Source: Allolobophora icterica (Eukaryota > Annelida > Clitellata > Crassiclitellata > Lumbricidae). From it: 64,000 bases of DNA. The notes under the pieces are model-generated. The model was not told the origin of the DNA. It saw only the letters and a program-made list of their open reading frames with translations, and searched no databases. Location: positions 36,201,466 to 36,265,465 of the forward strand of contig OY744616.1 of NCBI GenBank assembly GCA_963556255.1, written 5' to 3'. This document shows, piece after piece, positions 33,768 to 58,443 of the stretch (its first letter is position 1; each line of letters opens with the position of its first letter). The translations under genes were made by a program, and so were the position numbers.

Positions 33768-35228
33768 TCAGCCTCGAGGGAAAAGAAAGGTCTTTAAGCA
33801 GCGGAGAGAAGAAGGCGAGATCCCAAGCAAAATCTTGCTACGGAGAGAGGGGGGCAGGTCATTCCAAAGGGAAGGGCCAAGGATGGCAAACGCACGATGC
33901 TGAGCCATCGAAGTCCTTGCACGAGGGACAAGCAGATCAAGGCGGTCAGCAGACCGAAGAGGGCGGGAAGACAGAGCAGATAGAGGTTTGCGCATTAGGT
34001 CACAGAGGTATTTAGGAGCTTTTCCCAGTTGAGTCCTAGAGACCAGGAGAAGAACCTTGTATTGGATGCGGGAAGCAACAGGAAGCCAGTGAAGTACATC
34101 AGTCATAAAGGTAGTTATGTGAGAGAAGCGAGGAAAACGGGCAATGAGCCTGGCAGCCGCATTCAGAACAGACTGCAGAGATGAAAGGCGCGCTTTAGGG
34201 AGCCCAGCAAACAATGAATTGCAATAGTCAATGCGGCAGCAAATGAAGGCATGGACCATAGTAGTAAACACTGAAGGAGAAACTGATCTTCTTACAGCCC
34301 TCAAACGCCTCAGATGATAGAAACAGGAACGTGTCAGATGGGAGAGGTGTTCAGAAAACGAGAGGGTACTATCAAGGGTGACACCCAAATCCCGAACACT
34401 GGATGAAAATGAAAAAGCAGGGTATATTGACGACAGAAGTGGGATATCAAGTTTAGAAAGTTGCTGTTTAGTGCCAAACCAGATCAGTTGGGTCTTAGAA
34501 GAGTTAAGGTTAAGTCGATTTGATGACATCCAAGAGTGGAGATCATGTGACAGGGAATCAATGGATCCAACAAGGGAGATCTGCTGAGAGGATGGGCCTT
34601 GGACAAAGATCTGAACATCATCTGCATAAAGGTGACCAGAGGTAAAGTGTTTAGTAAATATAGAAGGAATGTCAGCTGTGTAGAGTAAGTACAGAATGGG
34701 GCCAAGGACAGAACCCTGTGGGACACCATACTCAACTCTAACCCAGGCAGTTCTGGAGTCACCAAGGACAATCCTCTGAGTACGGTCAGAGAGGTAAGAT
34801 TTGAACCAAAGAAGAGGGAGACCACTGAGACCACAAGATAGTTCAAGACGTTGAAGTAGGATTTCATGGTCAACCATGTCGAAGGCCGAGGAAACATCAA
34901 AAAGTGCTAGAAGCGTCAAATGAGACCTGTCAATGGCAGTATAAATGTCCGAGAGAAGTGACAGGAGGGCAGTTTCCGTAGAATGGTGACCTCTAAACCC
35001 TGATTGACTAGAAGGGAGGAGTCCAGACTGTTCAAGATAGGGCAGAAGTTGAAGCGAGACAAGTCTCTCAAGAGTTTTAGAGAGAAAAGAAAGGTTAGAA
35101 ATAGGACGATAGTTAGAACATACTTGTGAGTCAAGATTAGGTTTTTTGAGGGTAGGGAAGACAATAGCTTGCTTCTGAGATGGAGGGAGATGGCCCTCTG
35201 CTAGAGACCTATTGAACAAATATATCAA
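33768..35228 (-). CDS. L2/CR1-type LINE reverse transcriptase, 5'-truncated but open
   Basis: About 486 codons stay open on the minus strand. Reverse-transcriptase blocks appear in order: NYRPISNLSF, the SGFRGHHSTETALL block, motif A LFDVSSAFDMVDH, motif B GVPQGSVLGP, catalytic motif C YADD within HLYADDVQIF, then the SSKTQLIWFG and VRDLGVTLDSTL blocks and the L2/CR1 C-terminus (LHWLPVASRIQYKVLLLV, APKYLCDL, LWNDLPPSLR). The catalytic residues are therefore present. No ATG begins the frame at its 5' edge and no endonuclease precedes it, so the copy is 5'-truncated, the normal outcome of target-primed reverse transcription. The open frame suggests a recent insertion. It borders a pogo-like element. 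Confidence 0.92.
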   Translation of the reverse strand: MIYLFNRSLAEGHLPPSQKQAIVFPTLKKPNLDSQVCSNYRPISNLSFLSKTLERLVSLQLLPYLEQSGLLPSSQSGFRGHHSTETALLSLLSDIYTAIDRSHLTLLALFDVSSAFDMVDHEILLQRLELSCGLSGLPLLWFKSYLSDRTQRIVLGDSRTAWVRVEYGVPQGSVLGPILYLLYTADIPSIFTKHFTSGHLYADDVQIFVQGPSSQQISLVGSIDSLSHDLHSWMSSNRLNLNSSKTQLIWFGTKQQLSKLDIPLLSSIYPAFSFSSSVRDLGVTLDSTLSFSEHLSHLTRSCFYHLRRLRAVRRSVSPSVFTTMVHAFICCRIDYCNSLFAGLPKARLSSLQSVLNAAARLIARFPRFSHITTFMTDVLHWLPVASRIQYKVLLLVSRTQLGKAPKYLCDLMRKPLSALSSRPLRSADRLDLLVPRARTSMAQHRAFAILGPSLWNDLPPSLRSKILLGISPSSLRCLKTFLFPRG

Positions 35229-35261
35229 AAATGGGAAATTTATGCATGAGGCTTACATATG

Positions 35262-37470: not shown

Positions 37471-38280
37471 GACACCACTAAGTGACCTTCACTCGTCCTT
37501 GTCACAGGCGGGCAACGAATTCAACGCATGCGCCGATCGATAATGTGGGCGGAGCTAAGGAGGACTGCAGAGGCAGCGACGCATACAGATGGCTTCAGAT
37601 GGATACAGCAGCAGGTCAGCATCGCCAGCCACTCCTCTACTGGCATCGAATTTCTACGCTCGACGACAACGTAGACCCTTAATAGCAGCTGTAACACTGC
37701 CTGCCAGGCACCACGCATCATCAGCAAACAACACATTCCTCTGCGACCGTCCGATTAAGATATACAGCGTTACTAGATCTTATTCGATTGTCTGAGGTTA
37801 CAGTCACGGATTTTTACAACTGTTACGGTCTGTGAATCGGTTGTAGTCGACGACTCGCTTACTACAACCAAACAGTACAAGCACTTGCTTGACCGCCATC
37901 CTCGTATTATATGAATTATTCATCAGTGGGCGTGGCTTGCAATGTTTTGATCACGTAACAACGCTTATGTTGCCGAAAGACCGCGTATATTACGCCGGAG
38001 ACTGTGGCTGCTGCGTGACCAAACAGGATGTGTTTCAATAGAACAGCAAGAGCAGTTCAGCGGCTGACTGAGGACCGATTTCTCTCAGCCGCTAATTCGT
38101 CGATTCCCAGCGTAATTTCTCCCTTGACGCGCGGTTTCTAACGCCGCTGACGGAGATGGTTGCTGTGGCCTGAAAACTGGACCAAATAAACAATTAAGAT
38201 GGGTTCCTTCACCTAAGCACTCGCCTGAGGCTGAATAGGTCAAACATCTTTTCATCGGAAGCCACTTCTTTGTTCTCGTG
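37471..38280 (+). other. Upstream region of the PPP1R3-type gene
   Basis: More CpG-bearing and less repetitive than its surroundings, as expected for a 5' UTR and promoter. I cannot assign a transcription start, and an upstream non-coding exon cannot be excluded. Confidence 0.4.
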
Positions 38281-41200
38281 ATGTACCTTTTCGGATGTTG
38301 CGCCCGTAAGCACGACGATATCGACCGTGAAGCTTCGTTACTGTCACCTAAGATCGACGCCGAGAACCAACCACGTCGATCGAAAAGGTCCAAGAAACCC
38401 CACTATGGCCTCGTGAGTCAGGGCGGCCAGACCCTGCCACTGGATCCATGTACCAGGAGCCTAGAAGTGCACGTGGCACCCGGTGAGTACGAGGGAGGCA
38501 AATACTGCCTTGCCTTGATTTTGCCAGAGAATACAGATAGCGGTGGCGGGCATGACAAGGACGGTGGTACGGTGGGGTACGGAGAGTTCAGTGTCTCATC
38601 GTCTGTTCGTCTCCTGGATGAGGACAGCGATGCTGGAATTATCCAGGAGGATAACGTCGTCGCGGCGGAAGAGGAAGTGTGCTTTTCCAAATCCTCCGAT
38701 GGAAGTAGGTGGAGTACGTTATGCGAAGCGAGCAACGGAAGTTCGGTACGAGAGCTACGTGACGGATCGGTTATTTCGAGCGGTTTTGTTGGACGGAAGG
38801 TTGTGTGCGAGTCGCCGGATACGGGGATTTCCTGGTCGTTTCCGGATATTGCCTCATCCGACGAGCAAGGTAATTGCTTCGATAGCCCTCGTGCTCACCT
38901 GAGCGGAAACGCTACTCGTGAAGGAAGGACTGCCGGCGGTTATACCGTAATTTCAGACGGTGAGGCAGTTCTTCCGTCTCGCAGTGTTCCAGTGAGAGAT
39001 ATTTCTGAATATACTGCTGATAGTTGTGCTCCTGTAAACACTGAAATGGTGCCAGAATTCGAGTCTCAGACAGGCTTTGTCCAAGAAAATGTCTTCGCCG
39101 GAAATGGAGAGAAGTTTTCCAACGACGTGGTTCGCGTCACACAATACGTGCTGGAAACAATAAACAGAGTTTGTGATAGTTTTGAAAATCAGGATGTTAT
39201 ATATATTGATGATCAAGAATCGGATGATAAAGCCCCGATAAACGGCGAAGGTGGTGACTATGGCCAAGAAAGTGAGGCTGAATTAACTAAAACTGTTGAT
39301 AACATCGTTGATAGCGAAGTGATGAATGCCGCGCAATCTAAAACTACTCCAGAAAACTCTTCCGACGAAGGCGACTATTTTTTGTACAATGAGGATCCTG
39401 TTGACAATGCTAAGCAGACAGGAGACACCATCAACGCTGAAACTGGTGAAACCAAAGACTTTGAATGTGAAGTGACTAGCAATGTTGAAACCAGCAGTGA
39501 ATTTACATATAGTGCAATATTTAATGTTGAAAATTACGACAGTTTTGACCGCACTGTAGAAAACAACGATGAAGACAATATCATTGTTGTCTGTGACGGT
39601 TTTAAACGAATACCATTAATGTATACCGAGGAAAGTGACATTTGTTTTAACAAACCTTTTGAATTCAACAGGGAGCAACAACATGATGACTACAGCGATT
39701 CTAAGTATGAAATAGAAGATGTTGATGATGATTATCAGCAACTTGTTTATACAAGTGACGGAAAAATGATCGGTGATGCACATGTAGATTATTGTGATAA
39801 TGATCACAGCAGAATTGTTAACATTTCTGATAACATTGCGAATTTTTACACCGCAAACCCTCAAGAAGATGAATACATTGAGCTTATCGCTGATAGATTC
39901 GTAAGAGAGATTCTGAAGAGTAGCCTTGAAGAACAAAACTTAGGAAAGGTCGAACATTTGATGAATGTTAGCATGGATACATCTTCCCAGAATGGCATGA
40001 ATCTCTATGGTGACGACGAATGGCAGGTTGTGAGTGAAGATATTTCCTACGAACAAAACCTTTCAGCCGTTAATGAGCAAAGACATCGAGCATCAAGTCC
40101 AGAGATTCGTCAAGAACTTTCTACCGATGGTTTAAATATTTCCCAAATGGAATTGCATACCAACACCAAAGAACGGCATACCTTTGAAGAGAACCCTTCT
40201 CCCTTCCCTAAAGTGAACCGTTCTCCGACCTCTGAAGAGAACCGTTCTCCGACCTATGAAGAGAACCGTTCTCCGACCTTTGATGAGAACCGTTCTCCGA
40301 CCTCTGTAGAGAACCGTTCTCAGACCTCTGAAGAGAACCGTTATCCGACCTCTGTAGAGAACCGTTCTCCCACCTCTGAAGTGAACCGTTCTCCGACCTC
40401 TGTAGAGAACCGTTCTACGACCTCTGAAGAGAACCGTTCTCCGACCTGTAAAGAGAACCGTTCTCCGACCTATGAAGAGAACCGTTCTCCGACCTCTGAA
40501 GAAAACCGTGCTCCGACCCCTGAAGTGAACCGTTCTCCGACCTCGGAAGAGAACCGTTCCCCAACCTCTGAAGTGAACCGTTCCCCAACCTCTGAAGAGA
40601 ATCGTTCTCCGACCTCTGTAGAGAACCGTTCTCCGACCTCTGATGTGAACCGTTATCCGACCTCTGAAGTGAACCGTTCTCCGATCTCTGAAGAGAACCA
40701 TTATCCGACCTTTGAAGAGAACCGTTATCCAACCTCTGTAGAGAACCGTTCTCCGACCTCTGAACAGAACCGTTATCCGACCTCTGTAGAGAACCGTTCT
40801 CCGATCTCTGAAGAGAACCATTATCCGACCTTTGAAGAGAACCGTTCTCCGACCTCTGAAGTGAACCGTTCTCCGAAATCTGAAGTGAACCGTTCTCCGA
40901 CCTCGGAAGAGAACCGTTTTTCATCCTCTGAAGTGAACCGTTCTCCGACCTCTGTAGAGAACCGTTCTCCGACCTCTGAAGAGAACCGTTCTCCGACCTG
41001 TAAAAAGAACCGTTCTCCGACCTGTAAAAAGAACCGTTCTCCGGCCTATGAAGAGAACCGTTCTCCGACCTCTGAAGAAAACCTTGCTGCGACCCCTGAA
41101 GTGAACCGTTCTCCGACCTCTGTAGAGAACCGTTCTCCAATCTCTGAAGTGAACCGTTCCCCAACCTCTGAAGAGAACCGTTCTCCGACCTCTGTAGAGA

Positions 41201-44200
41201 ACCGTTCTCCGACCTCTGATGTGAACCGTTATCCGACCTCTAAAGAGAACCGTTCTTCGACCTCTGTAGAGAACCGTTCTCCGACCTCTGAAGAGAACCG
41301 TTCTCCGACCTCTGTAGAGAGACACTCTCCGACCCCTGAAGTGAACCGTTCTCCGATCTCTCTAGAGAACCGTTCTTCGACCTCTGTAGAGAACCGTTCT
41401 CCGACCTCTGAAGAGAACCGTTCTCCGATCTTTGAAGATAACCATTTTCCGACCTCTGAAGAGAACCATTTTCCGACCTCTGAAGTGAACCGTTCTACGA
41501 CCTCTGAAGAGAACCGTTCTCCGACCTCTGAAATGAACCGTTCTCCAATCTCTGAAGAGAACCGTTCTCCGACCTCTAAGGAGAACCGTTCTTCGACCTT
41601 TGAAGAGAACCGTTCTCCGACCTCTGAGGAGAAGCATTCTCCGACCTATGAAGAGAACCGTTCTCCGACCTCTGAGGAGAAGCATTCTCCGACCTATGAA
41701 GAGAACCGTTCTCCGACCTCTGTAGAGAACCGTTCTCCGACCTCTGAAGAGAACCGTTCTCTGACCTCTGAAGAGAACCATTCTCAGACCGAAGGGCTTG
41801 TGAGCGTCAATGATGATTGCATTAGTAAAATGCAGCTCTTTAACAATATAAGCAATTTCCAACGGGAGCAGCCAGTTACAAGTCATAGAATTGTTTTCGA
41901 AACGAGAGAGTCATTCACTGGTGCACTCACTGACGAAGAACAGTTGCATACTGCAAGTGAAGAAATTCCTGACGAAGAACTGGAAGTGACTTGTGAAGCA
42001 ATTCGTCCAGAAGAACAGATTGTCGTCAGTGAAGAAATTCCTATCCAGGAAGAACTGGCTGTGGCTGCTAGCCTGGTCGCAGCCAACGATGATAATAGTT
42101 TCTCCATAGCCTCACTTACTGAACGGAGAGACAGCGATACTGAAGCATCAAACTTGTGCAAAGATGTAATAGAAACTTCAGAGGAGCTGGATCTGTTCGA
42201 CCTTACAGATGGCAGAAATGTTTTAACGAACCAGTACCACGAACATGAAACTCAATACGAATTCAACGAGAACTTTCTTCTGTTACCACCTGCTGGGTAC
42301 TGTGAAGAGACCCTGGAATCAACTAAAGAATCTGGCTCAGATGAAAGTCATCAAGGGCAAGAGTTTTACGATCATATTGAAATCAGTCTGGAATCGCTTG
42401 AGCTCGCATTGCAAGACATCAGCCAATCTTCGCAACTAGATGAGGTTAAAAGCGATCTCTCTTTTCCCCCACACAGTGCAGGCACGATTGAAGTAAGCAC
42501 CCAAGGGACGGGTGAAGACGAGTTGATTCCGCCTGTAGAAGTGGATGAACGCACGACACAGGTCTCTGGCTTGACAGAACAGTCTAACTCTCCGAATCAG
42601 TTAACAGAAACATCGCTAGAAACAGAATGCTTTGAAAGCGAAACTTTATCAACTACAGAACTGCTTTGGAACGATACTGAACCATCGAAGTCTGGTCTAG
42701 TTTATCAGATAGATAAAGTTATCGAAGCTGTCGAAGATCCGTCTAAACCCGTGGAACTCTGTGACTCGTACAACGCTCCATTGGATCTCTCCTCGGCAGA
42801 TGACGGGTACTGTTCTTTCTCTGGTGCAGAAAACACCATAACGATATCCTGCGGAGGCCACTTTGGACTCTCAGTGGACGAATCTGGCAACTCAATAATA
42901 TGCCAGTCAACACCCAGCATGGCAGTTAGTGACGTCTGTGACGAAATGAATAATCTGAACGGCAACAATAATCTGGTCACGCGATTGACGGAATCAGAAA
43001 CGAACCTGGTGACCGACACATCATCGGAAGGGTGTTTGAAGTCAGAGTCGTTTGACAATATGTCGAATGCTGAAGTTGTTGCGGAGGAGGAGGACCTTGT
43101 CAATGCCAATATGTTGAACCTTTCCAGTGTATCGAATGATATCGACGAACTGGTGGAAAACAAGACTGCGGCCCAGATCGCTGCAGGGTGCGAGTCTTAC
43201 AAGCGTAGGCAGGATGACACAAACACAGCTGGTGATGTAGCCCTGGTGGAAAGTAATAAACCTGCTATTAAGAATTCGTCTGGTGCTGAAAGAGTTGTAC
43301 AGATAAATGACGACGAGAAAGGTGGAACAGAAACCCCTCCAGCTGTGGGTTCAATGTCGGAGAGACGTCACGGCAAAACTCGCTTTACCCGAACCAAGGT
43401 ACGTGAGGATGATATTTTTGTATTACCTTCCAATTCATGCAGATCCAAGAATCATTCCGAGGGACAACGTACACTTGCTTCGACTGTTGCTGCTTCTCCT
43501 TCCAGCAACATCAACGCTGACTTCTTCTCCACGTACATAATTGATCTATCCAAGGAGCTGAGAGAAGACGACCAGAAAGCAAGTATAGACGAGCTAGCAG
43601 ACCAAACATCTTTTAAAGACAGCATTACAGCAGACAATGCAACCTCGACATCCGCTAAAAAGCCAGACTTGAGTAGCTACCAGAATTCAGCTTTGACACG
43701 CTTGATTGACGACATGCATCTGCTGTCGCCTGATTCCTGCCGAGACCTTGCCAATTTCGTGGAGATGGAGGACTCTGCACAGCGGCCACCCAACGTACGG
43801 CGCAGCATCTCTCTGAAGACCTCACCGACTGGAACTCCCCGCAAGAAGAAGGCCGTCCGGTTCGCTGACGCCCTCGGCCTCGACCTCGAGTCCGTCCGCC
43901 ACATACGAAGCAACGATGACATCTCGACTGTTCCAACATCCGCTCTACCTCACGACTCCTCATCGCTCGCGCAGAATCTGACAGCGTCTTCAGTCCCATC
44001 GCGTTATCTCTACATGGAGTTCTCACAGCCGAGATCGCTGCCGGATTTCCTGTGCCGAGTCTACGACGAGAAGGTGTCGCTAGAGAGCTGCGTCTGTGAC
44101 GACAGAGACCACATCATAACCGGATGTGTTCGAGTGTACAATATTTCGTTCCGCAAGGAAGTCGTCGTTCGGTACACGACGAACGGCTGGGTTACGTACA

Positions 44201-44448
44201 GAGACACTCCGGCATCCTACCTGACCAACTCGAGTGATGGAACGACGGATCAGTTCTCCTTTACCATCGTCTTGCCAAGGTACTTCGACGTCGGAAGTCG
44301 ACTGGAATTTGCCATCTGGTTTCGCGCTGGCGAAGACCTCAGTCAAAGCCATTGGGACAACAACCATGATGCCAACTACTCCGTCGACTGCTACTCGAAC
44401 TGCAATGGCGGAAACAGCGACTCCCCGGCTTGGCTTCATTTTCTATGA
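38281..44448 (+). CDS. PPP1R3-type glycogen-targeting PP1 regulatory subunit with giant octapeptide array
   Basis: Proteins of this family bring protein phosphatase 1 to glycogen so that it can dephosphorylate glycogen synthase and phosphorylase. One exon gives 2055 residues from ATG 38281. The PP1-docking RVxF-type motif is KKKAVRFADALG (V1859, F1861), preceded by RRSIS (1840-1844), a basophilic-kinase-like site. A CBM21 domain follows at about 1920-2040, with GCVRVYNISF, VVVRYTTNGW, FSFTIVLP, LEFAIWF and the signature WDNN (2025-2028) before the C-terminus. Residues about 636-1170 hold about 67 copies of an octapeptide like ENRSPTSE; the rest of the N-terminal 1830 residues is acidic and apparently disordered. 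The start MYLFGCCARK has a Cys pair that might be acylated. Usual family length is 280-360, or about 1100 in PPP1R3A, where the domains are N-terminal. No paralogue assignment is possible. Confidence 0.93.
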   Translation: MYLFGCCARKHDDIDREASLLSPKIDAENQPRRSKRSKKPHYGLVSQGGQTLPLDPCTRSLEVHVAPGEYEGGKYCLALILPENTDSGGGHDKDGGTVGYGEFSVSSSVRLLDEDSDAGIIQEDNVVAAEEEVCFSKSSDGSRWSTLCEASNGSSVRELRDGSVISSGFVGRKVVCESPDTGISWSFPDIASSDEQGNCFDSPRAHLSGNATREGRTAGGYTVISDGEAVLPSRSVPVRDISEYTADSCAPVNTEMVPEFESQTGFVQENVFAGNGEKFSNDVVRVTQYVLETINRVCDSFENQDVIYIDDQESDDKAPINGEGGDYGQESEAELTKTVDNIVDSEVMNAAQSKTTPENSSDEGDYFLYNEDPVDNAKQTGDTINAETGETKDFECEVTSNVETSSEFTYSAIFNVENYDSFDRTVENNDEDNIIVVCDGFKRIPLMYTEESDICFNKPFEFNREQQHDDYSDSKYEIEDVDDDYQQLVYTSDGKMIGDAHVDYCDNDHSRIVNISDNIANFYTANPQEDEYIELIADRFVREILKSSLEEQNLGKVEHLMNVSMDTSSQNGMNLYGDDEWQVVSEDISYEQNLSAVNEQRHRASSPEIRQELSTDGLNISQMELHTNTKERHTFEENPSPFPKVNRSPTSEENRSPTYEENRSPTFDENRSPTSVENRSQTSEENRYPTSVENRSPTSEVNRSPTSVENRSTTSEENRSPTCKENRSPTYEENRSPTSEENRAPTPEVNRSPTSEENRSPTSEVNRSPTSEENRSPTSVENRSPTSDVNRYPTSEVNRSPISEENHYPTFEENRYPTSVENRSPTSEQNRYPTSVENRSPISEENHYPTFEENRSPTSEVNRSPKSEVNRSPTSEENRFSSSEVNRSPTSVENRSPTSEENRSPTCKKNRSPTCKKNRSPAYEENRSPTSEENLAATPEVNRSPTSVENRSPISEVNRSPTSEENRSPTSVENRSPTSDVNRYPTSKENRSSTSVENRSPTSEENRSPTSVERHSPTPEVNRSPISLENRSSTSVENRSPTSEENRSPIFEDNHFPTSEENHFPTSEVNRSTTSEENRSPTSEMNRSPISEENRSPTSKENRSSTFEENRSPTSEEKHSPTYEENRSPTSEEKHSPTYEENRSPTSVENRSPTSEENRSLTSEENHSQTEGLVSVNDDCISKMQLFNNISNFQREQPVTSHRIVFETRESFTGALTDEEQLHTASEEIPDEELEVTCEAIRPEEQIVVSEEIPIQEELAVAASLVAANDDNSFSIASLTERRDSDTEASNLCKDVIETSEELDLFDLTDGRNVLTNQYHEHETQYEFNENFLLLPPAGYCEETLESTKESGSDESHQGQEFYDHIEISLESLELALQDISQSSQLDEVKSDLSFPPHSAGTIEVSTQGTGEDELIPPVEVDERTTQVSGLTEQSNSPNQLTETSLETECFESETLSTTELLWNDTEPSKSGLVYQIDKVIEAVEDPSKPVELCDSYNAPLDLSSADDGYCSFSGAENTITISCGGHFGLSVDESGNSIICQSTPSMAVSDVCDEMNNLNGNNNLVTRLTESETNLVTDTSSEGCLKSESFDNMSNAEVVAEEEDLVNANMLNLSSVSNDIDELVENKTAAQIAAGCESYKRRQDDTNTAGDVALVESNKPAIKNSSGAERVVQINDDEKGGTETPPAVGSMSERRHGKTRFTRTKVREDDIFVLPSNSCRSKNHSEGQRTLASTVAASPSSNINADFFSTYIIDLSKELREDDQKASIDELADQTSFKDSITADNATSTSAKKPDLSSYQNSALTRLIDDMHLLSPDSCRDLANFVEMEDSAQRPPNVRRSISLKTSPTGTPRKKKAVRFADALGLDLESVRHIRSNDDISTVPTSALPHDSSSLAQNLTASSVPSRYLYMEFSQPRSLPDFLCRVYDEKVSLESCVCDDRDHIITGCVRVYNISFRKEVVVRYTTNGWVTYRDTPASYLTNSSDGTTDQFSFTIVLPRYFDVGSRLEFAIWFRAGEDLSQSHWDNNHDANYSVDCYSNCNGGNSDSPAWLHFL
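40187..41792 (+). repeat. Coding 24-bp minisatellite, about 67 units
   Basis: Each 24-bp unit (type 'gagaaccgttctccgacctc' plus 'tgaa') encodes one octapeptide. Unit variants change E/V at two positions and S/Y/T at others, while the Pro and Asn-Arg are mostly kept. No stop or frameshift interrupts it. Because 24 is divisible by three, minus-strand frames are also open; they are not genes. Confidence 0.97.
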
Positions 44449-47595: not shown

Positions 47596-47644
47596 GGAAG
47601 GGAGAGAGGGAGGGAGGGAGGGAGGGAGGGAGGGAGGGAGGGAG
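47596..47644. repeat. (GGGA)n microsatellite, left part
   Basis: About ten GGGA units directly abutting the left LTR; continued at 52869-52941 on the other side, so the LTR element split the array. The last five bases (GGGAG) match the first five on the far side, consistent with a 5-bp target duplication but not distinguishable from the repeat. Confidence 0.9.
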
Positions 47645-48370
47645 TGTCGCAATCGGAGGTCTCCCAGTCGTGTGTTTGCCGTGTGTTGATGTCGACCCTC
47701 GATTGCTTGTTCTTTTACTTGCACTTTTATTTAACGTGCCTAACTTTTCTATAGAAGATTCACGACGAACTTTGTTTAATTAATAAATGAATTTAATTAA
47801 AGAAACAAATATATACACTAACTCTACGGGAACTTCCACGTAGTATTAAAGCGTTTAAATATTAAATCGGACTATCTCAAATGTTGCTTCGTACAGCCTA
47901 ACTACAGATCGTTCTTTCGCGTCAGTCTCTGAATCTGACGGACTAATACTCTGCCGTCGCCGCTGGTCGCTCCTCTCGATGTTGTTCGCTCGACCGATGT
48001 TCACGCGTCCCCTCGTCAGTAGTATAAGTCCCGTGTTCTCCTTTTCCTTCCGTTAAGTAGGAACTTCAGCGTGCACCAGTCAGCCCCCCTCCCCACGTCA
48101 AGCTATCGTCAATTAGTGTCAGATTGCTCCTCGATACGCGGGTCGTCGCTCGCCTGCAGCGCGGGCGGTGTCTGGTTACACCATAGCCGCGAGGTGTCCT
48201 ATTACACCTTGGCTGTGTGGTGTCCGATTACACCTGGGCCTCGCGGCCTTCATTGTTGCCCAAGTGGAGACTGGCTTTTCGTCCGTCATCATCCTATCTC
48301 GACCGGCAACGACGCTTACATCATAATGATGATGCCATCTCGTCGTTGTTGTCGATCTCCTCACGCGACA
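47645..48370 (-). repeat. Left LTR (3' LTR of the minus-strand element)
   Basis: 726 bp with termini TGTCGC and GCGACA, which are inverted repeats of each other. Differs from the right LTR by a single base that I can find (G at 48245 against T at 52743). On the minus strand an AATAAA word lies at about 47727, a plausible polyadenylation signal. Frames inside the LTR are repeated in both copies and look non-coding. Confidence 0.97.
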
Positions 48371-48381
48371 CCTCCCTTCCC
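48371..48381 (-). other. Polypurine tract
   Basis: On the minus strand GGGAAGGGAGG sits directly before the 3' LTR, the usual plus-strand priming site in LTR elements. Confidence 0.75.
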
Positions 48382-48561
48382 GGGGGAGGACAAAGCCAGT
48401 CATTGGTTCGCCTCCCGGCTGAGAATGATGTCGTTCCCTCCCTCGATTTCCTCCAGACCATGTCCTCGTCGTTCCCATGAAAAATACAAAATATCAGCAC
48501 AGTTAGAAATATATTTACAGTTGTCTCGGTGCCTTACATGGTAGTCCGCCTTCTTCCTCAA

Positions 48562-51500
48562 TCATAGTCTGGACAAAAGATCAGCGGGAATATTCAGCGA
48601 CCCAGGTCGATATTCAAAGGAAATACCGAAGTCCTGGAGTGCCAGAGCCCATCTCGCAAGTTTAGCACTTGTGGGCGTAGAAGCAGTTAGGAAAGTCAAG
48701 GGGGTGTGATCAGAATAGAGGGTGGTCCTTGACATAAAAATCCAATCCCTAAACTTCTTCCACGCAGAAGTCACAGCATGCGCTTCGCGTTCCACAGTGG
48801 ACCCACGCGCTTGCGTAGCATCTAATTTAGAACTGGCGAAATATATTGGCCGTTCTGTTCCATCGACTTGAATTTGGAATAAGCAGCCTCCGACTGCTTT
48901 GTCTGAACCGTCAGTCGATAGACCAAACTCTCTGCCGTAGTCAATTGTCTGCAAACATACCGCGTTATTTAAATCGTGCGTAAGATTATCTAGCGCCTTT
49001 TGGTGATCAGCTCGCCAGGGTATCTTAACATGCACCGATTTCTGGGTCCAGTCAATGAGAATTCTGGCTGTCTCAGCCAGGTTAGGGATGAAGTTCCTAA
49101 AATGACTGAAGAAGCCCATTACTCTCCGTATGTCCTTTTTGGACTCGGGTTGAGGGATTTTCCCTAGCCCTGCGATTTTCATAGGATCCGGTTCAATGCT
49201 CCCTGATCCGATCAGGTGACCTACAAACGTTGTTTGTCGCCTAGCAAACGAACTCTTCTTAATGTTAAGGGTCAGACCCGACTGTTGAATAGTCATTAAG
49301 TACTTCTCTAGATGTTTCATGTGATCCGGCCACGTCATCGAATGTACTGCCATGTCACTATGTGAGGGAGTGATGATACCTAGGGCCAAAAGTTCGCGGG
49401 TCTGCTTCTCCATCTCCGGTTTGAGCAGTTCCGGCACCTTATAGGCTCGCAAACTCTTCGGCCTGAACTCCGCGCTAACAGTGATTGTGTGTTCTAGGAC
49501 GGGACAGAAACCTGGTTTGTCCGAGAACACATCTGGAAACCTGTCTAACAGACTAAACAGCTGTTTCCGCTCGGGTACCGTTAAGTGTGCAACGGCAATA
49601 GGGTCTACTTGTGCACTGGGCCTTGTCTGCCTCGTGACGAAGCTACCCACCGTTTCCCCGTGACCGAAGTCTTCGTCCTTCTCGAACAGAATGGAGCAAT
49701 TGTTAATCAATGCTTGCTGTATTCTTTCGTTATATTTGCGAATCCGATTTGCGTGTAGTAAGCGGCTTTTGCCCCCTATTTCCACGATGTATGTGTAGGG
49801 CGATTTCACCTGAGCGATGATGGCCGGGCCTTGCCATTGGCCCTCCTTCTTTGCTCCTCGCGCTTCCGGTGATTGGATGATGGCTTTGTCTATTCTCTCT
49901 TTAGGCAAGCACAGTTGTTTTACAGACTGCCCAGCTATTTTGTCTTTATAAAAGGGCAAATTGTCTTCAGTGAAGGAGCTCTTCGCCCCAATTTTCCCGT
50001 GGGCCAAGAATGGTGCTAGTGTCGAACATTGTGCTTGTTCGGCCGCCATCTTGTTTCTGCCTACTATTGTGTCTTCCTTGGGTGGGGGTGGTATCTCAGG
50101 ATTGAAGAATAGCTCTTCATTATCCGTTTCTTCGGGACCGATTTCTCCTACACTCCCCCTGTCTGCTTGAGCGCCCGTGAAGTAATCCTCGCCTATCAGC
50201 GTCCTAAGTCCCTCTACCTCCTCCCCTCTCTCCTCTTCCTCACTCGTCTCAGTCCTTGCGACCGCCTGCGCTTCTGAAATTTGGTCTATTTCAGGAGCGC
50301 TGGCCGCGTGACTCGAATACAACGCTGTCTCGCGCAGCAAGTCGGCTGTAGTGGGCGTGATAATTAACGGTTCATTAAGGTCTTTAATGAGTGCCGCCCA
50401 TATCCGAACATCAGGGGCGTAATTTACCTCCCCCTCGCTGTCCTCGCCGGCCTGAGACCCCTTTAGTCTCAGCCGCACCACGTCCACAATCATTGATTGA
50501 CCGTTCAGCCCCTTCACCTCTATCTGCTTGACCACAGGTAGGTTGAGCGGCCTGATTAGTTCTGCTCGCGCACAATTGTATTCGGCCCCGCTATCTATTA
50601 GAGACGATGTCACAGGGAGTCCCGTAATATACACTTTCATGTACTCTCTTACATAAGTCTCCTCCACGTCAATGCAATCCGGGTTTGTCGGCAATGCATG
50701 CTGTTCTATCTCTTGTATCAATGGCGGCCCGTCTTGTCGCGTCTCGCTTTGCCTGTCTGCCTGTCTGCCTTGAGCTCTGGTCACGGTTGGCTGGACCGCA
50801 CACGCGCTCACCTGTTTGCTTTTAGTTTGTTTGTTCTTCGAACACAGTTTAGCTCTGTGGTCTGGAGAAAAGCATAGGAAACAAAGGCCACGCTTTCTAA
50901 TCTCGTCGGGGGTTGGACGTCCGTCTGTCCTGTTATTTGTCTGTGTCCCTCCCGGTCGGTCAGTCCACGTGTCCGTCTGTTTAGCTGTCGTCTGAGGAGG
51001 TGCTGGCGCTTTCGCGTAGCGTGCCTCCGTCTTACCCGTGCCTAGACTATGCTTCTCAGCCTGTTCCTCCTCATCTTCTCTCCTCCACTTCTCCTCAAGC
51101 ACTCTGAGTCTTTCTTCTCTGCTTCGTCTCTCCTCCTGAAGCCTTATTTTCTCTGCTTCCTCTTTCTCTTCTCTCCTCTGCTTCTCTTCAAGCAGCCTGA
51201 GCTTCTCAGCCTGCTTCTCCTCATCTTCTCTCCTCCACTTCTCCTCAAGCATTCTGAGTCTTTCTTCATTCCTCTTTCTCTCTTCTTCGATCCGCCTGCG
51301 TTCCTTTTCACTGCTTCTCCTCACTCTTCTCTCCGCTTCCTCTCTTTGGTATGTTGTTAGTTCTAACATGACCCGCCGCATTTGCCTTGCCGGGCTCATA
51401 CTGCTACCTGGGCTACCTGTGCTTACTTTCTCACTTACTTCTGGCGGGATCTCCCTTCCAGAAACAATTATTTCAGCACTAGCCTCTTGGAGCTGGTCCA

Positions 51501-51615
51501 TCCTCATGGAACCCAATTCCTCCTCTCCTAGTCCCATCTTTATCAGATATGCGACTAGTCTGTGACGGGGCATGTTCAGCACCTTCACTCTTTTCCCTAT
51601 CGACAACTTATCCAT
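48562..51615 (-). CDS. Fused gag-pol with PR and RNase H but no IN core or RT palm
   Basis: The 1017-codon frame starts at ATG 51615. In order: a conserved-looking N-terminus (1-60), a long Glu/Arg coiled coil (about 85-205) with a duplicated EERLR(M/V)LEEKWRREDEE unit, a CCHC zinc knuckle CFLCFSPDHRAKLC (about 244-257), an aspartic protease core SLIDSGAEYNC (about 337-347), the integrase N-terminal lead-in DKIAGQSVKQL (about 555-570), then directly an integrase C-terminal GPY-like segment WQGPAIIAQVKSPYTYIVEI (about 595-615), RT fingers FPDVFSDKPG through LLALGIITPS (about 690-750), then directly the post-palm region beginning AVHSMTWPDHMKHL, thumb and connection, and RNase H (STDGSD, VEREAHAV, YSDHTPLTFL) ending PADLLSRL. 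A capsid-like segment, the DDE integrase core and the YxDD palm are not present. No stop or frameshift occurs. Confidence 0.9.
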   Translation of the reverse strand: MDKLSIGKRVKVLNMPRHRLVAYLIKMGLGEEELGSMRMDQLQEASAEIIVSGREIPPEVSEKVSTGSPGSSMSPARQMRRVMLELTTYQREEAERRVRRSSEKERRRIEEERKRNEERLRMLEEKWRREDEEKQAEKLRLLEEKQRREEKEEAEKIRLQEERRSREERLRVLEEKWRREDEEEQAEKHSLGTGKTEARYAKAPAPPQTTAKQTDTWTDRPGGTQTNNRTDGRPTPDEIRKRGLCFLCFSPDHRAKLCSKNKQTKSKQVSACAVQPTVTRAQGRQADRQSETRQDGPPLIQEIEQHALPTNPDCIDVEETYVREYMKVYITGLPVTSSLIDSGAEYNCARAELIRPLNLPVVKQIEVKGLNGQSMIVDVVRLRLKGSQAGEDSEGEVNYAPDVRIWAALIKDLNEPLIITPTTADLLRETALYSSHAASAPEIDQISEAQAVARTETSEEEERGEEVEGLRTLIGEDYFTGAQADRGSVGEIGPEETDNEELFFNPEIPPPPKEDTIVGRNKMAAEQAQCSTLAPFLAHGKIGAKSSFTEDNLPFYKDKIAGQSVKQLCLPKERIDKAIIQSPEARGAKKEGQWQGPAIIAQVKSPYTYIVEIGGKSRLLHANRIRKYNERIQQALINNCSILFEKDEDFGHGETVGSFVTRQTRPSAQVDPIAVAHLTVPERKQLFSLLDRFPDVFSDKPGFCPVLEHTITVSAEFRPKSLRAYKVPELLKPEMEKQTRELLALGIITPSHSDMAVHSMTWPDHMKHLEKYLMTIQQSGLTLNIKKSSFARRQTTFVGHLIGSGSIEPDPMKIAGLGKIPQPESKKDIRRVMGFFSHFRNFIPNLAETARILIDWTQKSVHVKIPWRADHQKALDNLTHDLNNAVCLQTIDYGREFGLSTDGSDKAVGGCLFQIQVDGTERPIYFASSKLDATQARGSTVEREAHAVTSAWKKFRDWIFMSRTTLYSDHTPLTFLTASTPTSAKLARWALALQDFGISFEYRPGSLNIPADLLSRL

Positions 51616-52130
51616 CTTCCAACAGTCCGCTCACTAATAGAAAAAGATAAGTAAGTTAGAGGAGAGTCACCGTTGGTCAGAAATCAAAGAAAACAACGTC
51701 CTAAAATTCTACCACAAATACAACAAGAACAGAACTGAGCAAAAGGAGCTACGCAAAAGCCTCGGCTATTCGCACACCAATCCTCATCCAGACCTCAACC
51801 GCAACCTCACAGATTACCCCGACTACCAGTAAGGACTTACCCTCTGAATACGTCGAGCGAGCTCCGTCTTTTGGTATCTTGGCTGATCCGCTGTCCTCCG
51901 TTGCCACTCCCGTCCGTCGTTGCTAGCGATGGTCGGTCGTCCGTCGGCGCTCTTGTTCCTCGTCCTTGCCTGTTGCTGTCGGTTGCTTTGAGTCCTTCGT
52001 CTCCGGAGTCCGGCACTCGATTTCTCCAGTTGCGAAGGGTTGTATTCGCCGCTGGTCCCGATCTGTTGAGATTCCTCTTTTCCGTTTCCGGTTCCGCTCT
52101 TCGTCGTGACGTCTTCAGTTGAAAACCTGT
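51616..52130 (-). other. Leader between primer site and gag-pol
   Basis: About 515 bp of 5' untranslated sequence on the minus strand; frames on the plus strand here are shadows. Confidence 0.6.
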
Positions 52131-52141
52131 CGACTGCGCCA
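52131..52141 (-). other. Primer-binding site, matches tRNA-Ser 3' end
   Basis: The minus strand reads TGGCGCAGTCG one base after the 5' LTR. This is complementary to CGACTGCG plus CCA, the acceptor end of animal tRNA-Ser, the primer used by several gypsy-group elements. Confidence 0.8.
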
Positions 52142-52142
52142 A

Positions 52143-52868
52143 TGTCGCAATCGGAGGTCTCCCAGTCGTGTGTTTGCCGTGTGTTGATGTCGACCCTCGA
52201 TTGCTTGTTCTTTTACTTGCACTTTTATTTAACGTGCCTAACTTTTCTATAGAAGATTCACGACGAACTTTGTTTAATTAATAAATGAATTTAATTAAAG
52301 AAACAAATATATACACTAACTCTACGGGAACTTCCACGTAGTATTAAAGCGTTTAAATATTAAATCGGACTATCTCAAATGTTGCTTCGTACAGCCTAAC
52401 TACAGATCGTTCTTTCGCGTCAGTCTCTGAATCTGACGGACTAATACTCTGCCGTCGCCGCTGGTCGCTCCTCTCGATGTTGTTCGCTCGACCGATGTTC
52501 ACGCGTCCCCTCGTCAGTAGTATAAGTCCCGTGTTCTCCTTTTCCTTCCGTTAAGTAGGAACTTCAGCGTGCACCAGTCAGCCCCCCTCCCCACGTCAAG
52601 CTATCGTCAATTAGTGTCAGATTGCTCCTCGATACGCGGGTCGTCGCTCGCCTGCAGCGCGGGCGGTGTCTGGTTACACCATAGCCGCGAGGTGTCCTAT
52701 TACACCTTGGCTGTGTGGTGTCCGATTACACCTGGGCCTCGCTGCCTTCATTGTTGCCCAAGTGGAGACTGGCTTTTCGTCCGTCATCATCCTATCTCGA
52801 CCGGCAACGACGCTTACATCATAATGATGATGCCATCTCGTCGTTGTTGTCGATCTCCTCACGCGACA
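52143..52868 (-). repeat. Right LTR (5' LTR of the minus-strand element)
   Basis: 726 bp, same TGTCGC/GCGACA termini as the left copy, one base different. It would contain the promoter that drives the minus-strand gag-pol. Confidence 0.97.
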
Positions 52869-52941
52869 GGGAGGGAGGGAGGGAGGGAGGGAGGGAGGGA
52901 GGGAGGGAGGGAGGAAGGGAGGGAGGGAGGGAGGGAGGGAG
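52869..52941. repeat. (GGGA)n microsatellite, right part
   Basis: About 18 GGGA units with one GGAA change; the other half of the array that the LTR element entered. Confidence 0.9.
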
Positions 52942-55285: not shown

Positions 55286-57342
55286 ATAGTTTCTTCTTCT
55301 TCGATTTTCTATCCTAAGACAGGTACAAAGAATCAAAACGACGCCATTCTTCGTTATTTTGTGCCTTTTCCTTAATTTCTTTATATCGTCGTCTGTTTCT
55401 TTCACCCATCACTCCCGTCCCCCACTCCCCACCCCCAAGTCGCCCTTGTAACGACATGGTCGCGTTACGGCGCTCTAGAAATTGTCCGTGCTATTATTGG
55501 TCTTCCTGGTGTTTTCTTTCCTTCAATCGTTCATTCAAGCACTGTCTTCAGTAGCGAATTTTCACGTAGTGTGTGGCCAGTGTAGTTCATTTGTCTCTTC
55601 TGTATTGTATTCTGATCATTGATCATAGGTCTTGCACCAGTTGCAACATCTCCTCGGTGGTTAATAATCCCTACAGCTGATCTTCGCCAGTCTTCTCCAT
55701 AGCCTCAAGTGCCTCGAGCTTCTCCATTTCCGCCTTTCCAATAGTCCCTATCTCCGTTTTTGTTTATTAACAATGAAAGACTCTGTCAGCCTTTAACAGA
55801 ACGTAATTCTACTATGTCAAGTATAGTAAGGTAGAGTCAAGAACAATTGTGCAGTGGAGTGCACGGTTTAACGCGTTGTAGACCTCCAGCAATAACAACC
55901 TTCATGAATCGCTCTATTAGGAGCATGATGTAGGTCATGCAGCACTTTTAAGAGATTTTTTAAAGACGCTAAATAAATGCCTGGATTTCTAATTGCCCAC
56001 AAAGCAATGCATTAGCGCTCACGTGCCCTGACCCCTCAAGTGAATTGCAATCGATGTACTCCCCCTCCCCGCTGCATCCAGTTTTCCCACCCACGACAGG
56101 TATTCGGCCCGCGTTTTTTGATCCCCAACCTGGGTGGGCCCGATAAAAACGTTATAGGGAGGATAATCGGACGATTTGCGGAAACAAACACAGACGACTG
56201 TAAAAAGCCAAAGACCAAGAGAAATATTACTCGACAGATTCGCCAAAATAAACAAACACAAGTGCCGGGTCGTGACCCCGACTGCATTAGCGCCACCTAT
56301 CGACACAGGTCTGCTATCTCAGATGGCGGCCAGATCCTCCTTACCTTGCCTGGGCCACCCCACCGTCCCTTGCCCTTCCTGCCTCCGCTCACCCTCCCCC
56401 CGCCCCATCGGTAAACGTGGGAGGAGAGCGTTCGTTCGTAAATTGGGTAACTCCATTTTGTTGGGAACGTTTTTCTTGTCGGACTACTTTCTGCGTTCTC
56501 GTAAATAAACATTTTGCCAAGTTGCCGTCGCTGTCGGAGTATTTGTTTTCACTTCCGGCCGGCCATTTATCGGTTCCGGTTCGGGGAAAGGAATTGCGAG
56601 CACCGACGATTAGGTAAACACTAGCACTTCCTCTAACAAGGACGCTCTGTGTGTGTGTATTTGTGCGATTGCGGCGTTCGTAATGCGATGGACGTCTGTC
56701 TAAGGGAAGAGCAGCAGCAGCACTCTGATCGGCGCTGCTGTTGGTCTATCGGGGGATCGTTCTTATTCGCTGGGTGGTGGTGATCCCTCGGTCTCCCGCG
56801 GCCAATCTCTTCGTGCTCTTCACTTTCACTCAAAACGCGGTTCTTCGGCTGCATTAGGTCGCACTCGACTGACGTCTACCACGTTTGCGATATCACTGGA
56901 TTGTCATCGACAGATAGTTTATAACTTTATATGATTTTATATCCATGGCAGAAGTTGACGGAAGTTGTCGAATGTGTTAGAGCGCTATAGAAATGAAAAT
57001 GCGCTTCAGGTGTAACTGATAGTTCGTCAGTCGATTTCTTATACGATTGCGTCAGCGTTGGATGTTCATTCTTTTGATTTTAACGGAAAATCGAAATTAC
57101 TCATTTTCGTCCAACAAGATTACAAAATTGCTGTTACTTCGATCTACGTTTGGCAAATACTTGAGGAGTTGATGTCGCGTTGATCCGCGTCCATCTAGGC
57201 TTAAGACTTTGCTTGAGAGAATTCTGTTGTCTGTTTTGTTTGCACTTAAATATTCATTAAACCACGAAAAGATATTCTGAAAGATACCCTGAAAGATACC
57301 TGGAAAGATACTTTGACATTCGAAGACATAAATTGTTTAAGA
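55286..57342 (+). promoter_or_regulatory. Upstream region and 5' UTR of the FoxL1-like gene
   Basis: CpG content rises between about 56040 and 56880, unlike the surrounding AT-rich DNA, as expected of a promoter region. Immediately before the start, four imperfect 12-bp repeats of 'tgaaagatacc' type lie at about 57267-57315. Short frames at 56040-56510 and 56633-56854 have no recognisable domain. I cannot place the transcription start. Confidence 0.4.
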
Positions 57343-58443
57343 ATGTCGTCCTGGGACTTGTATGGTCCCACTTTGGGATTTCCCTGTCAGCTGTGTTCAA
57401 CACTCAAGCCCTACTACCATGTTCCCAACGGACTACACTTGAACGGGTGTCACCAAACTGCCTTCTATCCCAGACACCACCTTGTTTCCGGTCTGTCTGA
57501 CGCAGCAGAGGCCATTTTCTTCCGGTCGAGGGGACTAAGCAACGTTGGGAAGAGCGGCAGTTACATTCAAGAACCTCCGCCACAGAAGCCGCCATTTTCC
57601 TACATCGCCCTAATCGCCATGGCCATCAACAGCGCCCCTGATCGAAAGATCACCCTCAACGGCATCTACCAGTATATCATGGAACGATTTCCCTATTACC
57701 ATGACAACAAGCAGGGTTGGCAGAACTCCATCCGTCACAACCTCAGCCTCAACGACTGTTTCGTCAAGGTGCCGAGGGACAAAGGTCAACCGGGGAAAGG
57801 CAGCTACTGGACCCTCGACAAAAGATACGACGATATGTTTGAGAAGGACAACTATCGCAGACGCAAGAGAAGACCAAGAGAAACGAAACTCGGGTCACAC
57901 AAGGGTCAAGGACAAGTCCACAGTGAAGGTCGATTGGCTCTCAGTCCAGCAGAGGCTGACAGATCGAACGGAAGGGTCTACTGGACAGACGGTGCGATCG
58001 AGGAGGAGCTGGAGATGGCATCGAAGATCGAAGTCTCCACCAACCCAGTTGACAGACGCAACCAGAAGTATTCTGAGGGAGAGGTGCTCGACCAGACTGT
58101 CGAGTATTTCGAAAACAGTGATTCAGACTACACCGGAAGTGGACCGTCGACGGCGCCGACCAATCTACTTTCAAAAAGACAAGATAGCGGATGTGGAGCT
58201 TCTATTTCGGAAACCTGTAACGGGAGAAAGCAACGGAAATCCGAACGAGGCAAAAGGAAATTTGAAATCGCGACCTACAATCATACGTCCAACTTCTCGC
58301 AGTTTCTGGAGTCATCGTTGTCCGGTGTTCCAGATGGAATTAGGTCGACAAGTCCTAGAAGCCGAGATGGATCAGTGAACAGGAATCATCTCTCTGTCAA
58401 GGCAAAACTCTTCTCTATCGAGCAGCTACTAGGCAGTACTTAG
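57343..58443 (+). CDS. foxL1: Forkhead transcription factor, FoxL1-like
   Basis: A nuclear DNA-binding regulator. The ATG at 57343 has A at -3 and starts MSSWDLYGP; the open frame extends ten codons upstream but without an ATG. The forkhead domain spans about 82-178: [14 protein letters not shown], then [20 protein letters not shown], the recognition helix [10 protein letters not shown] (128-137), then GKGSYWTLD and the basic tail RRRKRRPRE. The [10 protein letters not shown] and NDCFVKVPR words with [12 protein letters not shown] favour FoxL1 over FoxC, FoxI or FoxF. The last residues [11 protein letters not shown] contain an eh1-like motif (FSIEQLL, 357-363), known to bind Groucho/TLE co-repressors, and FoxL1 proteins have a similar SFSI word near their end. 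One exon of 366 residues is normal for FoxL1. FoxL1 often sits with FoxC, FoxF and FoxQ1; none is visible here. Confidence 0.88.

What the first reader, a model, noticed from the sequence alone, without database searches (positions are those of the whole stretch)
48562..51615. LTR element that has lost its integrase core, RT palm and apparently capsid, all in frame
Seen: RT fingers (LLALGIITPS) run straight into post-palm sequence (AVHSMTWPDH), and the integrase lead-in (GQSVKQLCLPKERIDKAIIQ) runs straight into the GPY-like segment (WQGPAIIAQV). Known: the DDE core and YxDD palm lie between these blocks in related elements. Inferred: three or at least two deletions each kept the frame, leaving protease, zinc knuckle and RNase H. 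Either a non-autonomous lineage still makes and needs a reduced Gag-Pol, or in-frame losses occurred by chance before amplification.
Basis: partly seen in the sequence, partly recalled or inferred. Interest (0 to 1): 0.75.

Follow-up and report, generated by a model that had tools for sequence, protein, structure and literature searches.

The report
Shrunken jumping gene keeps its frame
A virus-like jumping gene in an animal genome has lost the parts it needs to copy, package and insert itself, yet many shortened copies have spread beside a complete relative and kept their reading frame open, which suggests that a stripped-down protein, or its translation, still matters.

Summary
The element (47645-52868, minus strand; LTRs 725/726 identical) carries one intact 1017-aa frame without capsid block, integrase finger and core, and RT palm. 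Against 30 copies with an integrase core, the IN deletion is 909 bp in 30 and the RT deletion 363 bp in 24. Three partner LTRs read are 94-95% identical. One copy each was checked of two intermediates: integrase lost only; integrase and palm lost, capsid kept. In 30 shortened copies, aa 308-1017 show 0 indels to 327 substitutions (LTR 29:150 in 29 copies). Protease stays constrained (dN/dS 0.23, partner 0.18); post-palm RT and RNase H are relaxed (0.75 and 0.45, partner 0.21 and 0.16). Best reading: a trans-mobilised parasite of a Gmr1-like element, resembling mouse IAP 1-delta-1, in which open translation, perhaps with the protease half, still matters. Expression and mobility were not tested.

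The parts
52143..52868 (-). 5' LTR (726 bp)
   Evidence: 725/726 identical to the other LTR, TG...CA ends
47645..48370 (-). 3' LTR (726 bp)
   Evidence: three partner LTRs read are 94-95% identical
47640..47644 (.). target-site duplication GGGAG (other copy 52869-52873), inside a GGGA microsatellite, so its exact length is uncertain
   Evidence: flanks read; copy L002 has ATGAT on both sides
52126..52141 (-). primer-binding site TGGCGCAGTCGACAGG next to the 5' LTR
   Evidence: sequence read; complement to a tRNA-Ser 3' end is recalled, not tested
48371..48386 (-). polypurine-rich tract next to the 3' LTR
   Evidence: sequence read
51616..52142 (-). untranslated leader
   Evidence: between 5' LTR and the start shared with relatives
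48562..51615 (-). single open frame, 1017 aa plus stop; start MDKLS and end LSRL as in relatives
51052..51615 (-). Gag N-terminal part and charged coiled coil (aa 1-188)
   Evidence: aligns with P0005 and P0007; long helix in the model of relative P0032
51040..51057 (-). capsid-deletion junction (aa 187-192, EKHSLG)
   Evidence: block present in 8 of 8 Gag relatives; other copies show other junction forms
50842..50883 (-). CCHC zinc knuckle CFLCFSPDHRAKLC
   Evidence: sequence; lost in L027-L030
50380..50694 (-). aspartic protease region (aa 308-412; LIDSGA at 50584-50601)
   Evidence: sub-threshold Pfam match; dN/dS 0.23 in reduced copies
49891..50007 (-). integrase lead-in (aa 537-575)
   Evidence: aligns with P0059
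49873..49899 (-). integrase-deletion junction (909 bp lost between GACAA repeats)
   Evidence: 40 of 40 scored DNA hits and 150 of 150 scored peptide hits, window included, cross it
49666..49890 (-). integrase C-terminal (GPY/SH3-like) segment (aa 576-650)
   Evidence: 86% identity to P0002 over aa 576-756
49357..49665 (-). RT N-terminal (fingers) segment (aa 651-753)
49339..49368 (-). RT-palm deletion junction (363 bp lost between TGAAATGGC and TGACATGGC)
   Evidence: crossed without gap in 30 of 30 copies
48946..49347 (-). post-palm RT remnant (aa 757-890)
   Evidence: dN/dS 0.75 against 0.21 in partners
48565..48945 (-). RNase H region (aa 891-1017)
   Evidence: PF17917 E 1.8e-25; dN/dS 0.45 against 0.16 in partners

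Best explanation
This is one young copy of a non-autonomous, multi-copy family of Gmr1-like Ty3/gypsy retrotransposons. Shown: it differs from longer elements of the same genome, with much the same LTR, by in-frame deletions, two of which lie between short direct repeats; 30 of 30 copies read share the IN and RT junctions; longer and intermediate forms coexist; reduced copies share far more variants with longer copies than chance gives; aa 308-1017 keep their frame. Inferred: the deletions arose by template jumps during reverse transcription. The reduced RNA is packaged into particles made by the full-length partner, which supplies capsid, RT and integrase in trans. Copies whose RNA can be translated through are favoured, because the short polyprotein (coiled coil, usually zinc knuckle, protease) helps its own RNA in cis, or because an early stop would expose the RNA to decay. 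The RT and RNase H tail is carried mainly as open frame, not as enzyme.
For: Family: 99 match rows from 45 scored candidates with the whole ORF; IN junction crossed in 40 of 40 scored DNA hits and 150 of 150 scored peptide hits, window included. Partner: 108 hits with an integrase core, 49 of 108 in frames of 1600 aa or more; 3 LTRs read, 94-95%. Microhomology 5 bp and 8 of 9 bp, read in 3 partner loci. Intermediates, one copy each: IN lost with RT palm present (L066); IN and RT lost with capsid present (L064, L065). Rounds of copying: within-copy LTR divergence 96/11342 in 29 copies (many LTR pairs only partly covered) against 3.5% between copies. Shared variation: 78 of 150 reduced polymorphisms have both alleles in 24 main-lineage longer copies, 8.6 expected. 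Frame: 0 indels to 327 substitutions over aa 308-1017 in 30 copies, LTR 29:150 in 29 copies; 130 of 150 frames at least 850 aa. Constraint by region.
Against: No expression, protein or mobility data. L001-L030 were chosen by whole-ORF protein score, which favours open copies; the 84-aa list is ranked by score too, is capped, and a frame of 850 aa need not be complete. Six of 30 copies carry stops or frameshifts and one could not be scored; indels outside aa 308-1017, in the coil, are common. Low protease dN/dS could be imported by recombination with longer copies; the test on variants private to reduced copies is small (7N:7S against 45N:9S, p 0.015). The integrase C-terminus estimate is unstable: 0.41 and 0.65 with other pairs and borders; RT fingers overlap with the partner's interval. 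Some copies lack the zinc knuckle. Four-gamete failures rise from 27% under 100 bp to 44-51% beyond, but recurrent mutation or recurrent deletion at the same repeats is not excluded.
Confidence: 0.65

Rival explanations
1. Plain defective passengers: the same non-autonomous family moved in trans, but the open frame has no role. The frame looks kept because the family is young, recombines with intact copies and was sampled by protein score.
For: RT fingers and post-palm RT near the neutral ratio; heavy sharing of variants with longer copies; capped, score-ranked lists; 6 of 30 copies disabled.
Against: 0 indels in 30 copies over 2130 bp against about 36 transmitted indels expected from the LTR ratio; 130 of 150 frames of at least 850 aa when only 84 aa were used to pick; private missense variants depleted in NC-protease-linker but not in the tail.
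Confidence: 0.3
2. Three deletions in one full-length copy after it inserted here, by chance in frame.
For: Deletions between short repeats can arise in chromosomes as well.
Against: The IN and RT junctions occur at many other places; LTRs differ by 1 in 726.
Confidence: 0.01
3. Assembly artefact: the missing blocks were collapsed or dropped in assembly.
For: No reads were available.
Against: The IN junction is crossed at 150 scored places on 17 contigs, while copies with the missing blocks are assembled in the same genome and intermediates exist.
Confidence: 0.02
4. A domesticated host gene derived from the element.
For: Open frame with a constrained protease part.
Against: Near-identical LTRs and target duplications at the two sites looked at; many dispersed copies.
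Confidence: 0.02

Closest known systems
Mouse IAP 1-delta-1 elements (PMC6466679, PMC7411935; passages seen)
   Same: A 1.9-kb deletion in gag and pol that leaves an open fused frame; non-autonomous; needs gag and pol in trans; the fusion protein is reported to help in cis; [quoted passage not shown]
   Different: IAP is a mouse endogenous retrovirus; one deletion there, here three blocks removed with intermediates present. Here the protease part is the constrained one. The cis effect is not tested here.
Gmr1-like Ty3/gypsy elements (Goodwin and Poulter 2002, not seen; cited in PMC8220671 and PMC2774666, passages seen)
   Same: Integrase upstream of RT; a Gag block weakly related to a SCAN-bearing Gag relative.
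   Different: The window copy lacks capsid block, integrase core and RT palm.
Plant TR-GAG elements (PMC8704663, abstract and passages seen)
   Same: Non-autonomous LTR element beside an autonomous relative; keeps an open frame; reported to transpose.
   Different: TR-GAG keeps Gag alone; here the capsid block is lost and protease and RNase H segments are kept.
Autonomous and non-autonomous partners in soybean (Du et al. 2010; title seen in the reference list of PMC5668417)
   Same: Partners that exchange sequence (LTR swapping, from the title).
   Different: Paper not read; nothing is claimed about its reading frames.

Membership tests
Gmr1-like Ty3/gypsy | Integrase domain upstream of RT/RNase H | tested here: met
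   Pfam order rve then RVT_1 in 7 (P0002, P0003, P0004, P0006, P0008, P0010, P0011) of the 12 relatives with both domains among 15 scanned; the other 5 are RT-first and more distant. Same order of remnants in the window
Gmr1-like Ty3/gypsy | Ty3/gypsy-type RT and RNase H | tested here: met
   PF17917 and PF17919 in the window, PF00078 in relatives
Gmr1-like Ty3/gypsy | RT or integrase tree groups with named Gmr1 reference elements | not tested
   No named reference sequence was at hand; no tree was built
Gmr1-like Ty3/gypsy | SCAN-related Gag capsid (reported for over half of Gmr elements in frogs, PMC4131045; see also PMC3424704; passages seen) | tested here: inconclusive
   No Pfam SCAN hit in 4 Gag relatives; weak match to P0008 overlapping its SCAN part; fold hits to Arc and PNMA2 capsids at E above 0.1
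Non-autonomous LTR retrotransposon | LTRs, PBS, PPT and target duplication kept, replication enzymes missing | tested here: met
Non-autonomous LTR retrotransposon | Many copies sharing the deletion, and a longer partner with much the same LTR | tested here: met
   that the partner is active was not tested
IAP 1-delta-1-like cis-acting fusion element | Fused gag-pol frame kept open across copies | tested here: met
   23 of 30 fully open; 130 of 150 in frames of at least 850 aa; both samples score-ranked
IAP 1-delta-1-like cis-acting fusion element | Fusion protein raises retrotransposition of its own RNA in cis | not testable with these tools
   Needs experiments; only signs of selection were measured

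The most novel reading that the evidence does not exclude
A retrotransposon has gone through stepwise in-frame reduction (integrase, then RT palm, then capsid, then in some copies the zinc knuckle), with several stages apparently multiplying in one genome, and with selection on an open frame and on the protease half but not on the RT/RNase H tail. The parasite's RNA is thus chosen in cis by being translated: the reduced polyprotein, or simply translation to the natural stop, gives it access to the partner's particles. This would be an IAP 1-delta-1-like strategy reached independently in a Gmr1-like element that has no capsid of its own.
Probability: 0.35. Interest if true: 0.75.

Novelty: new variant of a known kind. 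Interest (0 to 1): 0.6.

Why it matters
Non-autonomous LTR elements are often treated as RNA passengers. Here longer, intermediate and reduced forms sit in one genome with measurable selection, so the question why some passengers keep a translatable frame can be tested. Protease constraint without post-palm RT/RNase H constraint separates 'the frame must be open' from 'the enzymes must work'. No paper joining Gmr1 with this kind of element was recognised in the listings of two searches (10 of 12 papers listed, none opened for this; none found); most subscription papers are not in that library.

Tried and rejected
Scan of viral contigs with the ORF: 14 pattern matches, no relative. BLAST of the element against the rest of the window: no second copy. 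Post-insertion loss and assembly loss are rejected as main explanations because the junctions recur. An early protein-only argument for relaxed RNase H (25 window-specific against 2 P0002-specific changes; 23 against 8 with other outgroups) was replaced by DNA comparisons within the genome. A neutral dN/dS of 1 was rejected; the LTR spectrum gives 0.74. The all-pairs ratio of 0.505 is not main evidence, since pairs are not independent. The PBS tRNA was not tested. Frame-length classes in the 150 hits (10 at 1340-1415 aa, 37 at 1230-1320, 81 at 850-1190, 20 below 850, 2 above 2000) suggest stages, but coil length varies, 7 of the 37 are one tandem cluster, and only one copy each of the first two classes was checked. 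Whether the capsid-junction forms are independent losses or later trimming of one loss is not settled.

Rows dropped: one search used 24 of 30 longer loci for the partner pairs (L041, L045, L053, L054, L059 are a lineage at 84-91% identity; L032 is another deletion derivative); L007 has masked bases and was not scored; one search used 29 of 30 LTRs (at least 700 bp); one search has 29 of 30 LTR pairs.

Odds changed on checking: best explanation 0.8 to 0.65 and novel case 0.40 to 0.35, because the integrase C-terminus ratio depends on pairing, the capsid-junction forms may not be independent, and multiplication of the intermediates rests on frame length; the bare claim of a trans-mobilised non-autonomous family is shared by the first rival and is much surer.
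Full report
What is there. The element spans 47645-52868 on the minus strand: two 726-bp LTRs with one mismatch, GGGAG on both sides inside a GGGA microsatellite, a primer-binding site and a purine-rich tract beside the LTRs, a 527-bp leader and a single open frame of 1017 aa. Pfam sees RNase H strongly; protease and RT matches are below threshold.

The losses. A search of 5.8 billion proteins, in which 7990 candidates were scored, gave close relatives. P0002 (86-88% identity in aligned parts) has integrase core, RT and RNase H; P0005 and P0007 have Gag with a block that the window lacks; P0001 has RT but another integrase loss, at a different junction. Two further searches with pieces gave 8 Gag proteins in all, each with the block (two end inside it), and P0059 with a full integrase. 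None of the 60 proteins carries the window's IN or RT junction words or its 5-letter capsid-junction words. The Gag block is helical in a model of P0032 (mean pLDDT 65 overall); its best fold matches are Arc, PNMA2 and dArc capsids, but at E above 0.1, so 'capsid' is likely rather than proved. A weak match to the Gag of P0008 overlaps its SCAN domain; Pfam finds no SCAN in four of the Gag relatives.

Family. Among 15 relatives scanned, 7 of the 12 with both domains have integrase before RT; the window's remnants have the same order. That order is the published mark of Gmr1 elements (PMC8220671 and PMC2774666, passages seen). No tree with named references was made.

Copies in the same genome. 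The genome holding the window (1.118 Gb, 328 contigs) answered. With the whole ORF, 45 candidates were scored and 30 loci kept, the window among them. Over aa 308-1017 the 30 align without an indel, crossing the IN and RT junctions, with 3 stops in all. None of the 30 longest open frames matches the capsid profile. Twenty-three of 30 are open from the conserved start to the conserved stop; six have stops or frameshifts, one was not scored. Because these were ranked by protein score, two samples less tied to the frame were taken: 251 bp of DNA around the IN junction, where 40 of 40 scored hits cover the query from end to end at 98-100% (1092 candidates), and an 84-aa peptide, where 150 of 150 scored hits cross the junction (149 over all 84 residues, one over 83; 3366 candidates). 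Frames around these run from 488 to 2205 aa, median 1029.5, 130 of 150 at least 850 aa. Both lists include the window, are ranked by score and are capped.

Partner. A search with P0059 gave 108 scored loci with an integrase core, 49 of 108 in frames of at least 1600 aa. In the 30 of these read in DNA the window aligns in pieces: the IN deletion is 909 bp in 30 of 30, the RT deletion 363 bp in 24 of 30, the other six having length changes of their own. In three loci shown, the IN ends share GACAA, with one differing base in two of them on the right side, and the RT ends are TGAAATGGC and TGACATGGC. Three partner LTRs are 94-95% identical to the window's. Reduced and main partner copies differ by only 3 fixed sites in 2387.

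Stages. Frame lengths suggested intermediates. One copy with a 1387-aa frame has the IN deletion but an intact RT palm region; one copy with a 1259-aa frame has IN and RT deletions but the full capsid block. The capsid junction differs among copies: one form in L001, L002, L003 and L009, another in L010 and L011, and a third, which also removes the zinc knuckle, in L027-L030 (not all 30 were compared). The third shares its coil end with the first and is probably a later deletion; whether the second is an independent loss is open. The order IN, RT, CA is inferred from these single checks.

Mobility. Within-copy LTR divergence is 96 of 11342 sites over 29 copies, many only partly covered, against 3.5% between copies, so much of the variation is older than the single insertions. 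Of 150 polymorphisms carried by at least two reduced copies, 78 have both alleles in the 24 main partner copies; 8.6 would be expected by chance. Four-gamete failures are 27% under 100 bp and 44-51% beyond. This fits template switching between co-packaged RNAs, proposed for another LTR element (PMC5668417, passages seen), though recurrent mutation or deletion is not excluded.

Selection. The LTR spectrum gives a neutral dN/dS of 0.74. In 15 reduced and 12 partner sister pairs the ratios are: protease 0.23 and 0.18; linker 0.40 and 0.36; integrase C-terminus 0.65 and 0.14; RT fingers 0.67 and 0.31; post-palm RT 0.75 and 0.21; RNase H 0.45 and 0.16. Bootstrap intervals are apart for post-palm RT and RNase H, touch for the integrase C-terminus, and overlap for RT fingers. 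With other pairs and borders the reduced values are protease 0.21, linker 0.42, integrase C-terminus 0.41, RT fingers 0.71, post-palm RT 0.65, RNase H 0.55, so the integrase C-terminus value is unstable. Variants private to reduced copies and carried by at least two of them are 7N:7S in NC-protease-linker and 45N:9S in the tail (Fisher p 0.015). In the tail, and among singletons, private N:S exceeds the neutral value of about 2.4, probably because silent variants are more often shared with the partner and so leave the private class; only the contrast between regions is used. Indels: 29 to 150 substitutions in the LTR, 0 to 327 over aa 308-1017. For comparison, partner loci, picked by integrase alone, show 9 indels (8 frameshifting) and 4 stops over much the same region, reduced copies 0 and 2.

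Reading. A trans-mobilised, shrinking passenger of a Gmr1-like element whose frame appears protected. The closest precedent is mouse IAP 1-delta-1, a deleted form with an open gag-pol fusion that needs help in trans and is reported to act in cis (PMC6466679, PMC7411935, passages seen). Whether the protease half works as protein, or only translation matters, or neither, is open.

Noticed in passing
20202-21938 (+): piggyBac-like transposase (DDE_Tnp_1_7, E 3e-54 and 7e-13) in two open pieces (the name piggyBac is recalled).
   Followed up: partly
38239-44448 (+): A 2069-aa open frame with a CBM21 domain near its end and a long ENRSPTSE-type repeat in the middle; likeness to glycogen-targeting PP1 subunits is recalled.
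   Followed up: partly
57250-58443 (+): Forkhead-domain frame (E 4e-40).
   Followed up: no
33768-35252 (-): Reverse transcriptase frame, 494 aa, probably of a non-LTR element.
   Followed up: no
G000:C1:33521297-33623933: Seven hits in frames of 1277 aa within about 100 kb, probably a tandem or segmental duplication of one IN-deleted copy.
   Followed up: no
G000:C5:5506705 and 5509477: Two IN-junction hits 2.8 kb apart both lie in a 2205-aa open frame, perhaps a head-to-tail fusion of two coding parts.
   Followed up: no
L032: A different derivative: integrase core and RT kept, while much of capsid, zinc knuckle and protease is missing.
   Followed up: no
P0001: A relative from a metagenome contig with the integrase core lost at another junction and RT kept.
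   Followed up: no
L041, L045, L053, L054, L059: A second lineage with integrase core at 84-91% identity to the window; L053 and L054 lie 5.7 kb apart.
   Followed up: no
G000:C15:28560392 (L040): An integrase hit inside a 3218-aa open frame, far longer than the usual 1690 or so.
   Followed up: no
aa 308-993 of reduced copies: Synonymous divergence among reduced copies varies about fourfold along the frame (0.018 in RT fingers, 0.080 in RNase H), perhaps mosaic ancestry.
   Followed up: partly
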